From contig JABSRN010000003.1 in the NCBI GenBank assembly GCA_013214025.1, positions 62,001 through 126,000 of the forward strand: a DNA stretch of 64,000 bases, read 5' to 3'. The notes beneath the pieces are model-generated. The model did no database searches and was not told the DNA's origin. It was given only the letters and a program-made list of their open reading frames with translations. The translations under genes and the position numbers were made by a program. The DNA comes from Polyangiaceae bacterium (GTDB taxonomy: Bacteria; Myxococcota_A; Polyangia; Polyangiales; Polyangiaceae). Shown in pieces: positions 18,366 to 21,538 of the stretch. The first letter of the stretch is position 1. Each line of letters opens with the position of its first letter.

Positions 18366-19958
18366 TTAGCGTCTAACGAGGAAAATGGTGGCGTTTTCCT
18401 TCTTCGGCAACCAACGAACTCCGTGCCAACCGCGCGGCACTGCGGGTTCGGTCCATTCGAATAGATGTTTGCCATCGATGGGGGAGACGTTGACACAGCC
18501 GCCGCTCTTTTTCTCCCCCCACTCGTTGTGCCAATACGCTCCGTGAAGAGCGTGAGGTCCGCTGAAATTCTGTGCCCAGGGCACGTCGGAATGCACCAAT
18601 TCGCCGGGTGCGACCATCGTTGCCGTGGCGAACTTGCCGGTGATTTTGTACTGACCGGTTGGAGTGGATGCGGTTTCGATCGCGTCCTTGCCGGGGACGG
18701 GAACTCCGCCGCGGCCTGGCGACATCAGCGTTACGAATACGGCTCGTTGCCCTTCGTAGGCAAGCAGCCAACCGCCCAGCACGCTGACGTCAATCCAGGT
18801 CTTGCGCCCACTAGGCGTCCTGCCAGTCGTATCTTCCGCGTCGCCGAGGGGCGCCCCCCATGGTGTCTTGTCCCTCAACTTGGGGACCACCGCATCTTTC
18901 TCTCGTGTGTACAGCCCGTGGTCTCGGGTCTCCAGGTAATGATGAGCGCCTGCACGGAGGGATTCCCCGGTTAGCTCCACATGGCTGAGACGGCGAAACC
19001 GCTGCTCGGTCTGTTCGAACTCGGTGTCGGATATGCGTTTGTATTTTGCATGGTCCTGACCACGGAAGAACGCCAGCGGCATCTTGGCGTCGCGCGGGAG
19101 CTGGAGTCCGGCGAAGGTGACCTTCGGGTATGCGGTCAAACGATCCTTGGGGATCCACGCGTAGTCGGCTGTCAGAAGAAAGGGGCGACCTTCGTGTTCG
19201 ACTTCTGCCGACCAGGCCACGGTGGAGCGAGCTCGCATCCGCTGTCGCTCCATCCGGAGGGTGCGGGGTAGCTTAGGGAGCAGTACCGGACCCTGGGGAC
19301 GCACGGCCAGCTCGGCCGCTTTCGTGCTGTCGACGGGGGGGCCACCGTCCGCCAAAGCGGCGGCTCGGCTCAAGTGCGATTCGAGATCCCACTCCCGGCG
19401 CCGTTGCAACTTTTGGCTTGGGAGCTCTTGGTATCGCTGGGCCTCGTTGGATTTGGCGTAGTGATGGGGCCAAGCAGTATCGAGCTTCGGCGCGTAGGGC
19501 ATGAGACCGAGGCGCACGGGATCGTCCGGATCGATCGTAGCGCGTTTGCCCATCGCGCAGACGAAGCCCCGGGGTTTGACCGCGTACCACTTCTGACATC
19601 CTGGTCCGGCTTTCGGTTCTTCATCGACGAGTTTGGCAGAGCCTCCGACCCACAGAAAACCGAGCCACTGGGAATTCGAATCCCTGCGTTCGCGCACCCA
19701 GACGTTGCGGGTAAGTGCGTACACTCGTGGCATGAGCGCTATCGAAGGAGCCGCTTCGGCTTCGGCATCCGCCTCGGTCGCTGAGGCGTCGGCACTCGGA
19801 GTGGGCGCGTCGGCCTGCGTCGCTCGCTGGCCGCTGGGCGTGCTGGCCGACGCCGGGACAGCTTCGGATGAGTTGCAGCGGGTCAGCGCCGTCGCGATCA
19901 CAGCCAGCCACGGCCAAGCGGTTGCCCCGACGCGAGAGAACAAGGAAGCGAAATTCAT
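18366..19958 (-). CDS. L,D-transpeptidase (YkuD family), envelope protein
   Basis: 530 aa. A membrane or secretion signal (1-28) is followed by an Ala/Ser/Asp-rich spacer. The C-terminal 130 residues hold the YkuD catalytic domain with HGAYWHNEWG and SGGCVNVSP; the Cys is the nucleophile, the His is in HG. It would cross-link or modify peptidoglycan in the periplasm. The central 270 residues (90-360) have no clear match; SH3-like segments are possible. Cys28 lies in TRCNSS, a poor lipobox, so lipidation is doubtful. Upstream of and almost touching the DTW gene. Confidence 0.88.
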   Translation of the reverse strand: MNFASLFSRVGATAWPWLAVIATALTRCNSSEAVPASASTPSGQRATQADAPTPSADASATEADAEAEAAPSIALMPRVYALTRNVWVRERRDSNSQWLGFLWVGGSAKLVDEEPKAGPGCQKWYAVKPRGFVCAMGKRATIDPDDPVRLGLMPYAPKLDTAWPHHYAKSNEAQRYQELPSQKLQRRREWDLESHLSRAAALADGGPPVDSTKAAELAVRPQGPVLLPKLPRTLRMERQRMRARSTVAWSAEVEHEGRPFLLTADYAWIPKDRLTAYPKVTFAGLQLPRDAKMPLAFFRGQDHAKYKRISDTEFEQTEQRFRRLSHVELTGESLRAGAHHYLETRDHGLYTREKDAVVPKLRDKTPWGAPLGDAEDTTGRTPSGRKTWIDVSVLGGWLLAYEGQRAVFVTLMSPGRGGVPVPGKDAIETASTPTGQYKITGKFATATMVAPGELVHSDVPWAQNFSGPHALHGAYWHNEWGEKKSGGCVNVSPIDGKHLFEWTEPAVPRGWHGVRWLPKKENATIFLVRR

Positions 19959-19980
19959 GGGGCGAAAGCCTGGCGGATAG

Positions 19981-20000
19981 CTAGCGCACGCTAGCGCACG
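19981..20000. repeat. 10-bp direct repeat in the LDT-mutH divergent promoter region
   Basis: CTAGCGCACG twice in tandem, directly ahead of the L,D-transpeptidase start. Possible operator or chance duplication. Confidence 0.4.
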
Positions 20001-20097
20001 GTTTGAAGGAACACGACATTTCCCCTAGAAAGCCGTGTGATTTGGGCAATACGGACACCGCCCCACTACCCGGCAGCAGCTCCCCTATGATGGGGCC

Positions 20098-20787
20098 ATG
20101 CCCGTAGCTCCGCCGATCTCCGAGGATGAGTTGATGAGCCGAGCTCGTGCCGTTTCGGGACAGCGACTGGGCGATTTGGGCGCCGCTCACGGCGTGTCCG
20201 TTCCACCTGATTTGCGTCGAGCCAAGGGCTGGGTCGGCAACTTGATGGAACGGTTGTTGGGCGCTACGGCGACGAGTCGTTCGGTGCCGGATTTCGAAAA
20301 AATTGGAGTTGAGCTAAAAACCTTGCCGGTGAGCTCACGGGGAGTTCCGCTGGAGTCGACCTTCGTCTGCACGATTCCGCTGGGCGAAGTGGGCGACGTG
20401 GAATGGGAGGAGTCCCGAGTGTTCCGCAAGATCCGACGGGTCTTGTGGATGCCTGTACAAGGGGAACGCCAGATCCCGGTAGGGGAACGTATGGTGGGGG
20501 CACCGCTATTGTGGAGCCCGAGTGACGCTCAATGTGCGCAGTTGCGTTTCGACTGGGAAGAGCTAGCGGGGGTGATCGGTCGCGGGGATGTCGAGTCGAT
20601 TACTGGGCATCTAGGCGTGGTGTTGCAAGTGCGTCCCAAAGCCGCCAACGCTGCGTCTCGACGCCGGGGCGTGGACCAAGACGGAGCGAATTTTGCGACC
20701 TTGCCCCGGGGCTTCTACCTACGAAGCAGTTTCACCCGGGGGATTCTTGCGGATAATTTTTCGCTGCCGGAAGTCCGGCGGCCCTGA
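20098..20787 (+). CDS. mutH: DNA mismatch repair endonuclease MutH
   Basis: 229 aa, the same length as E. coli MutH, and collinear with it through the whole protein. Seen: KGWVGNLMERLLGA, FEKIGVELKTLPV, PLESTFVC, VPVQGER-like MPVQGERQIPVGER, GAPLLWSPSD, RFDWEEL, RPKAANA, TLPRGFYLRSSFT. The metal-binding catalytic residues are intact: Glu51, Asp65, Glu72 and Lys74 (the DxnExK nuclease motif). In gammaproteobacteria MutH nicks the unmethylated strand at GATC, guided by MutL. MutS, MutL and Dam are not in this window. No close operon partner. Confidence 0.96.
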   Translation: MPVAPPISEDELMSRARAVSGQRLGDLGAAHGVSVPPDLRRAKGWVGNLMERLLGATATSRSVPDFEKIGVELKTLPVSSRGVPLESTFVCTIPLGEVGDVEWEESRVFRKIRRVLWMPVQGERQIPVGERMVGAPLLWSPSDAQCAQLRFDWEELAGVIGRGDVESITGHLGVVLQVRPKAANAASRRRGVDQDGANFATLPRGFYLRSSFTRGILADNFSLPEVRRP

Positions 20788-20809: not shown

Positions 20810-21538
20810 TCAGTTTGGCGGCAACCCGAGGTGAAGGTGGTCGTGGTGGTCCGCGTTGTGATCAGGAGTGATCAATTCTTTGAACATCCCTAGGTTTCGC
20901 AGGCGACAGCTGGCTTGGTTCAGTAGGGGGGCATCGGTGTCGCAGCCGTCGCCTAGCTCTTTTTCGAAGTGCTTTTTTACCGTGTAGCGCGCGTTCGCAG
21001 TGCTCACGCCATGTACATCGATGGCGAGGCCTCGGGCATGTAAGCTGGGCCGGCCGCTGCGGGTGGTGCGGTACACGTAGGCGCCGGAGTAGCGGACCGT
21101 ATGCACACCCAGGGCTTTGAAGCGGGCGGACGCGTAATACAGAGCGACCGCCAGCCGGCAATCGCAGCTCATCGGATTTTCCGTGCCGTTGGCATAACGC
21201 ACCCCTCGGATCGGGCCTGTTACGCTGATCGGAGTCTCCATTCCACGGGTGGGCGGCAGAGCCTCGTAAGGCACGCCGTAGCTAGCGAGCCAGTCCAAGC
21301 AGGGCTGCCCGCCGCCCAAATCAGAGCCGAAGGGATGGTGACGGGTCCAAGGAACCGGCACGGCATCACTTCGCGGGACGACCATCTGGCTGCGGCGAGG
21401 CGGCGGAGGCGCTGAGTCCGAATTCCACGCGGAGTAGCTGGCATAACCGTAGCCCTGGGGCCAGGCCGGCGCCGGTTCTCGGGCACAGCCAATCAAACTG
21501 AAAAGAGCGAGCAGCAGAACGGCGCGGGTCATTGGCAA
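20810..21538 (-). CDS. extensin-like lipoprotein, probable D-Ala-D-Ala-type peptidase
   Basis: 242 aa. Lipoprotein signal ending LIGC (Cys18). Residues about 75-242 match the extensin-like C-terminal family: [38 protein letters not shown] and a C-terminal HHDHLHLGL. The HxxxxxxD and HxH residues mirror the zinc site of M15 (VanY/MepA-like) peptidases. Role in peptidoglycan trimming is inferred. Converges on mutH, and is divergent from the glutathione reductase gene. Confidence 0.88.

What the first reader, a model, noticed from the sequence alone, without database searches (positions are those of the whole stretch)
20098..20787. MutH homologue in an apparently deltaproteobacterial genome
MutH is largely confined to Dam-containing gammaproteobacteria. 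Here the sequence is collinear with E. coli MutH and keeps Glu51, Asp65, Glu72 and Lys74. That implies either methyl-directed mismatch repair in this lineage or lateral transfer. The divergent promoter region has a 10-bp tandem repeat.
Basis: partly seen in the sequence, partly recalled or inferred. Interest (0 to 1): 0.62.

Follow-up and report, generated by a model that had tools for sequence, protein, structure and literature searches.

The report
MutH mismatch-repair nickase in a myxobacterium
This myxobacterium carries a genuine MutH, the enzyme that tells E. coli which DNA strand to correct, together with the matching DNA-marking enzyme Dam, and many relatives in its phylum do too, so judging by gene content this repair strategy is not limited to the relatives of E. 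coli.

Summary
Window 20098-20787(+) encodes a 229-aa MutH that passes both curated MutH cut-offs, is 50% identical to an E. coli MutH stretch and keeps all catalytic, GATC-reading and methyl-sensing residues tested. The genome is a Polyangiaceae-like Myxococcota assembly and also has Dam, MutS and MutL but no SeqA. Recent transfer is not supported: 116 of 377 sampled genomes of the phylum have MutH, its neighbourhood is shared with relatives, and the nearest MutHs are from the same family. MutH co-occurs with Dam (99 of 116). MutL nuclease motifs are lost in 49 of 108 MutH+ against 8 of 66 MutH- genomes, as expected if MutH replaced MutL's nick; within families p is 0.016, in independent pairs it is not significant. 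Unlike E. coli, this MutL keeps its nuclease ligands, as do 54 of 108 MutH+ genomes. Best reading: Dam-directed mismatch repair with a MutL that may also nick. This conflicts with reviews that confine the pathway to gammaproteobacteria. All evidence is sequence.

The parts
20098..20787 (+). mutH, 229 aa, GATC-specific nickase of methyl-directed mismatch repair
20224..20319 (+). nuclease core within mutH: K43-G44, E51, D65, E72-L-K74
   Evidence: K43, E51, D65, E72 and K74 invariant in 58 of 58 Myxococcota and 67 of 67 gammaproteobacterial rows
20632..20640 (+). GATC-contact loop R179-P180-K181 (E. coli R184-P185-K186)
   Evidence: invariant in the same 125 rows; R184A abolishes activity in PMC10940147 (passages)
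20716..20718 (+). Y207 (E. coli Tyr212, senses adenine methylation)
   Evidence: invariant in the same 125 rows; role from PMC3848065 (passages)
19959..20097 (.). 139-bp divergent intergenic region between the L,D-transpeptidase gene and mutH
   Evidence: no sigma-70-like promoter found
19980..20000 (.). 10-bp tandem repeat GCTAGCGCAC x2.1, function unknown
18366..19958 (-). divergent neighbour: L,D-transpeptidase (YkuD) protein; context only, conserved next to mutH in relatives
   Evidence: synteny
20810..21538 (-). convergent neighbour: extensin-like C-terminal domain protein; context only, conserved near mutH in relatives
   Evidence: synteny

Best explanation
The gene is a true mutH, inherited within its own family of Myxococcota. 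Dam (elsewhere in the genome) methylates GATC; just after replication the new strand is unmethylated; MutS finds a mismatch, MutL is recruited and switches on MutH, which nicks the unmethylated strand at a nearby GATC so that the new strand is removed. Shown here: the genes, their active-site residues, their co-occurrence and the pattern of MutL change across the phylum. Inferred: GATC methylation, MutL-MutH contact, nicking, and a role in repair. Because this genome's MutL keeps its own nuclease ligands, I infer with less confidence (about one half) that MutL can also nick, so that methyl-directed and MutL-nuclease repair coexist here.
For: MutH over curated equivalog cut-offs; 10 of 11 tested functional positions invariant across 58 Myxococcota and 67 gammaproteobacterial rows. 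One Dam (261 bits, cut-off 114.85), one MutL and a MutS1 (860 bits, cut-off 641.7) in the same genome. Dam has DPPY and NVPFG motifs and no gene of restriction-enzyme kind was recognised in its 1.4-kb flanks (neighbours judged by eye, not family-scanned). Phylum: MutH+Dam+ 99, MutH+Dam- 17, MutH-Dam+ 127, neither 134; odds ratio 6.1, p 3.7e-12, not corrected for relatedness. MutL nuclease core lost in 49, partial in 5, kept in 54 of 108 MutH+ genomes; 8, 2 and 56 of 66 MutH- genomes; odds ratio 5.6 for lost or partial; within families p 0.016. Losses in MutH+ genomes fall in 11 families, e.g. f29: 16 of 16 MutH+ lost, 2 of 2 MutH- kept. Positive control: 25 of 25 gammaproteobacterial MutH+ genomes lost the core by the same script. 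363 GATC in 64 kb, one per about 176 bp.
Against: No activity or methylation data. 17 of 116 MutH+ genomes lack a Dam match, 11 of them in one family, f25, so MutH need not always work with this Dam type. The independent-pairs test is not significant (same way 4.7, opposite 0.9, median p 0.22). Half of the MutH+ genomes, this one included, keep the MutL nuclease core, so MutH has not replaced MutL here. The last Glu of the MutL motif is His here, so its nuclease may be impaired; but that position also varies in genomes without MutH. SeqA is absent from 377 of 377 genomes, so the E. coli gene set is incomplete.
Confidence: 0.75

Rival explanations
1. MutH is present but mismatch repair in this lineage is driven by the MutL nuclease; MutH is a minor, redundant or differently used GATC nickase (for example in restriction of unmethylated DNA).
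For: This MutL keeps D, H, E of motif DQHAxxE, the AC motif and CPHGRP; 52 of 54 core-kept MutH+ MutLs match the strict pattern; 9 of 9 MutH- genomes read in the same family also keep it.
Against: MutH residues for GATC reading and methyl sensing are invariant; MutL cores are lost mainly where MutH is present; weak match to restriction enzymes only (PADLOC 22.8 bits; Sau3AI 47.2 bits, cut-off 300).
Confidence: 0.15
2. Recent lateral transfer of mutH from a gammaproteobacterium.
For: MutH is best known from gammaproteobacteria; identity to E. coli MutH is still 50%.
Against: Best identity is to Myxococcota (65-67%); nearest rows all belong to the same family f1 or to identical named records; neighbours conserved in 7 of 12 f1 loci and 7 of 10 named Myxococcota loci but 0 of 9 gammaproteobacterial loci; mutH GC 0.61 against window 0.61.
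Confidence: 0.03
3. A Sau3AI-type restriction enzyme rather than MutH.
For: Sau3AI is a relative: NCBIfam 47.2 bits, PDB 4pxg 7e-6.
Against: Far below the Sau3AI cut-off of 300 bits, well over both MutH cut-offs; 229 aa with one domain; none of the seven neighbours scanned is a methylase.
Confidence: 0.04

Closest known systems
E. coli / H. influenzae MutH in Dam-directed mismatch repair
   Same: Full-length collinear protein, same catalytic and GATC/methyl-reading residues, Dam, MutS and MutL in the genome.
   Different: Host is Myxococcota; no SeqA; MutL keeps nuclease ligands that 25 of 25 gammaproteobacterial controls have lost.
Nuclease-type MutL of MutH-less bacteria (B. subtilis, N. gonorrhoeae)
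   Same: This genome's MutL has DQHAAAER, AC and CPHGRP; N. gonorrhoeae has DMHAAAERVNYE (PMC2965676, passages).
   Different: Coexists with MutH and Dam; last Glu of the motif is His.
Sau3AI restriction endonuclease
   Same: Related nuclease by sequence.
   Different: Sub-threshold score, 229 aa instead of about 500 (4pxg chain 509 aa), no methylase among the neighbours scanned.

Membership tests
MutH | Passes curated MutH equivalog models | tested here: met
   NF003458 291.9 of 243 bits; TIGR02248 255.6 of 229.9 bits
MutH | Catalytic E/D/E/K, K48, K116, R184-P185-K186, Y212 equivalents | tested here: met
   all present
MutH | Nicks unmethylated strand of hemimethylated GATC when activated by MutL | not testable with these tools
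   needs biochemistry
Dam-directed (methyl-directed) mismatch repair | Dam, MutS, MutL and MutH in one genome | tested here: met
Dam-directed (methyl-directed) mismatch repair | GATC sites are methylated genome-wide | not testable with these tools
   no methylation data
Dam-directed (methyl-directed) mismatch repair | MutL without nuclease motif (a trait of the known gammaproteobacterial systems) | tested here: not met
   own MutL keeps DQHAxxE, AC and CPHGRP, last Glu changed to His; lost in 25 of 25 gammaproteobacterial controls
E. coli Dam-associated gene set | SeqA present | tested here: not met
   0 of 377 genomes, own included
E. coli Dam-associated gene set | MukBEF present | not tested
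   no search run
Sau3AI restriction endonuclease | Passes Sau3AI model | tested here: not met
   47.2 of 300 bits

The most novel reading that the evidence does not exclude
Dam-MutH mismatch repair is an old trait of Myxococcota, and it runs there in a two-nickase form: MutH reads the methyl mark while MutL keeps its own selected nuclease. In many lineages MutL then lost its nuclease, as in gammaproteobacteria. Two further families (f35, f46) do the same with a much diverged MutH. The gammaproteobacterial system would be one late, reduced version of a wider theme, and one family (f13) that has lost the MutL nuclease without any MutH found would use a nicking enzyme not yet known.
Probability: 0.35. 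Interest if true: 0.8.

Novelty: new variant of a known kind. Interest (0 to 1): 0.58.

Why it matters
Reviews state that methyl-directed repair is restricted to E. coli-related gammaproteobacteria (PMC8235422, passages), that only a few gammaproteobacteria have it and that MutL lacks the nuclease domain where MutH exists (PMC8744996, passages). If the reading is right, those generalisations are wrong: MutH is common in a second phylum, and MutH and a nuclease-type MutL coexist in half of the MutH+ genomes read. That gives natural intermediates for asking how strand choice by methylation replaced MutL nicking, and a phylum with cultured members in which both nickases could be removed one at a time.

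Tried and rejected
Rejected: contaminant or gammaproteobacterial contig; Sau3AI-type enzyme; a defence gene (weak match only). A role for the tandem repeat was not found: no promoter or terminator pattern. GATC is neither strongly avoided nor enriched (observed/expected 0.89). The direction of any ancient transfer between the phyla could not be settled: held as one clade, Myxococcota gave a tree at least as good, p-AU 0.655; many forks of the MutH tree are open. A survey of MutH across Pseudomonadota was planned and could not be run. Literature: searches listed no paper that I recognised as reporting MutH in Myxococcota (titles and abstract starts seen; passages read in seven papers); the library holds open-licence PubMed Central papers only. 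[quoted passage not shown]

Rows dropped or changed before counts: 10 weak MutH-like hits of family f35 were taken out of the 126 matches, leaving 116. MutH and Dam lists were copied by hand from the listings; their sizes (126, 226) agree with the tallies. MutL was read for 181 genomes: 109 of 116 MutH+ and 72 of 261 others, the latter chosen by me mainly from the same families, not at random; G286 and G081 were set aside as cut off, leaving 179. The script wrongly called six C-terminal fragments (G306, G104, G174, G295, G312, G141) motif-less, and gave three more fragments (G145, G234, G362) only one motif, because it looked only past residue 250; these were reset by hand from the motifs, with one of them (G295) scored partial. 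A chance match in G057 was scored as lost. L017 was left out of the residue counts (frame misread), L017 and L245 out of the test, near-identical gammaproteobacterial rows out of the trees.

Full report
What is there. The ORF at 20098-20787(+) encodes 229 aa. It matches Pfam MutH over 54-152 and both NCBIfam MutH equivalog models over their cut-offs along nearly the whole length, and aligns without a gap to E. coli MutH 11-230. In an alignment with 22 other Myxococcota MutHs and stretches of the E. coli and H. influenzae proteins it is 50% and 48% identical to the latter two. Eleven functional positions were checked in 129 rows: ten (equivalents of E. coli K48, E56, D70, E77, K79, K116, R184, P185, K186, Y212; choice of positions partly recalled) are invariant in 58 of 58 Myxococcota and 67 of 67 gammaproteobacterial rows; the F94 position varies in both. 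K48A, R184A and Y212S abolish editing by a MutH-based editor and D70A is described as endonuclease-inactivated (PMC10940147, passages); Tyr212 is important for determining the methylation state (PMC3848065, passages).

Host. The nearest named records are 'Myxococcales', 'Polyangiaceae' and 'Polyangia' MAGs, best 67% identical.

Partners in the genome (5.77 Mb, 184 contigs, 97% complete). One MutH; one Dam, 261 bits over a cut-off of 114.85, with DPPY and NVPFG motifs and without a recognised restriction gene in the 1.4-kb flanks seen (the neighbours were judged by eye, not scanned against family models); one MutL over the cut-off; one MutS1 of 860 bits. SeqA is absent here and in all 377 genomes of the phylum sample, while E. 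coli rings as control. MukBEF was not searched.

Not a recent arrival. Of 377 genomes drawn evenly from the phylum, 126 match TIGR02248; 10 are weak, diverged hits in family f35, leaving 116. The mutH neighbours, the divergent L,D-transpeptidase and/or the convergent extensin-like gene, are found in the flanks of 7 of 12 family f1 loci and 7 of 10 named Myxococcota loci (L215-L224, three of them the same genes as f1 loci by identity), and in 0 of 9 gammaproteobacterial loci. In the MutH tree the nearest rows to this MutH are family members or named records identical to them; gammaproteobacterial rows form one side of a weakly supported branch (60), inside Myxococcota diversity when rooted on f35. 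That rooting proves nothing: Myxococcota as one clade is not rejected (p-AU 0.655).

Is it used in repair? Two comparative signals. First, co-occurrence with Dam: MutH+Dam+ 99, MutH+Dam- 17, MutH-Dam+ 127, neither 134 (Fisher p 3.7e-12, not corrected for relatedness). Second, MutL. MutH-less bacteria nick with a nuclease in MutL marked by DQHA(X)2E(X)4E and helper motifs; a review says that this motif is in all MutL homologues except those of some gammaproteobacteria with MutH (PMC3848065, passages). I read MutL in 181 genomes (loci). After two unreadable ones, core lost/partial/kept is 49/5/54 of 108 MutH+; 8/2/56 of 66 MutH-; 5/0/0 of 5 in f35. Of the 8 lost without MutH, 5 are family f13, the others are G105, G260 and G373, the last two from less complete assemblies (73% and 90%) in families where MutH is common. 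Stratified by family the link has p 0.016 (7 informative families, partial cores dropped). On a MutL N-domain tree of 155 rows core state changes at least 17 times; in independent pairs the link goes the expected way 4.7 times and the opposite way 0.9 times, median p 0.22, not significant. By the same script 25 of 25 MutH-bearing gammaproteobacteria have lost the core (30 controls were read, the other five being Myxococcota or unnamed records: three kept, two lost).

The twist. This genome's MutL reads DQHAAAERVNFH ... ACHGSI ... CPHGRP: the D, H and E, the AC and the C-H pair of the nuclease site are kept, and only the last Glu of the motif is His. In N. gonorrhoeae MutL (DMHAAAERVNYE) that Glu pairs with an Arg; in B. 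subtilis the His and the first Glu help to hold Zn, and D462N abolishes activity (PMC2965676, passages). The last position varies in this phylum with or without MutH (Glu in 16 of 52 MutH+ and 25 of 54 MutH- strict-core MutLs), so its change says little. Thus 54 of 108 MutH+ genomes, in 13 families, carry MutH and an apparently nuclease-competent MutL. A review states that MutL of organisms with MutH lacks this domain; the same review notes that P. aeruginosa MutL, of the nuclease type, can still interact with E. coli MutH in vitro (PMC8744996, passages), so the two functions need not exclude each other.

How it most likely works. Dam marks GATC; MutS and MutL activate MutH at hemimethylated GATC; the unmethylated strand is nicked and removed. 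GATC is frequent enough (363 in 64 kb, about one per 176 bp). In this lineage MutL may add nicks of its own. The steps of methylation, contact and nicking are inferred.

Exceptions that the model must face. Family f25 has MutH without a Dam match in 11 of 13 MutH+ genomes, and keeps the MutL core in 11 of 11 MutH+ genomes read in full. Whether another GATC methylase serves there is unknown. Among MutH+ genomes core loss, partial loss included, is commoner with Dam (51 of 95) than without (3 of 13), p 0.07.

Diverged MutHs. Family f35 has a MutH-like protein (L344-L346) that passes Pfam MutH but falls far below the MutH equivalog cut-off (L346: 64.7 of 243 bits); it keeps the K, E and D, an ELK two residues closer to the D, RP(K/R) and the Tyr (the alignment sets the ELK out of register). 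A profile with it found the type in 10 of 13 f35 genomes and in 3 of 3 f46 genomes, which I had picked only because their MutL C-domain was weak or missing, and in 0 of 11 f13 genomes. So f13, with MutL core lost in 5 of 5 read, no Dam and no MutH, remains without a known nicking enzyme.

Verdict. All of this is sequence evidence.

Noticed in passing
L344, L345, L346:3144-3815(-); families f35 and f46: Strongly diverged MutH-like proteins (20-25% identical to four ordinary MutHs) in 10 of 13 f35 and 3 of 3 f46 genomes; f35 MutL has lost its nuclease core in 5 of 5 read. Possibly a second MutH subtype.
   Followed up: partly
family f13 genomes (e.g. L125, L145, L147, L148, L149): MutL nuclease core lost in 5 of 5 read, yet no Dam and no MutH, diverged MutH included, in 11 of 11: no known nicking enzyme.
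   Followed up: partly
family f25 genomes (e.g. L002, L011, L029): MutH without a Dam match in 11 of 13 MutH+ genomes, with MutL nuclease core kept in 11 of 11 read in full.
   Followed up: partly
377 genomes of the phylum: Dam in 226 of 377 genomes but SeqA in none: Dam must have roles here that do not involve SeqA.
   Followed up: no
19980-20000: 10-bp tandem repeat (2.1 copies) just upstream of the divergent L,D-transpeptidase gene; conservation in relatives not checked.
   Followed up: partly
L345, G057 and G212: The diverged MutH and MutL genes lie about 10 kb apart on one contig in G057 and in G212.
   Followed up: no
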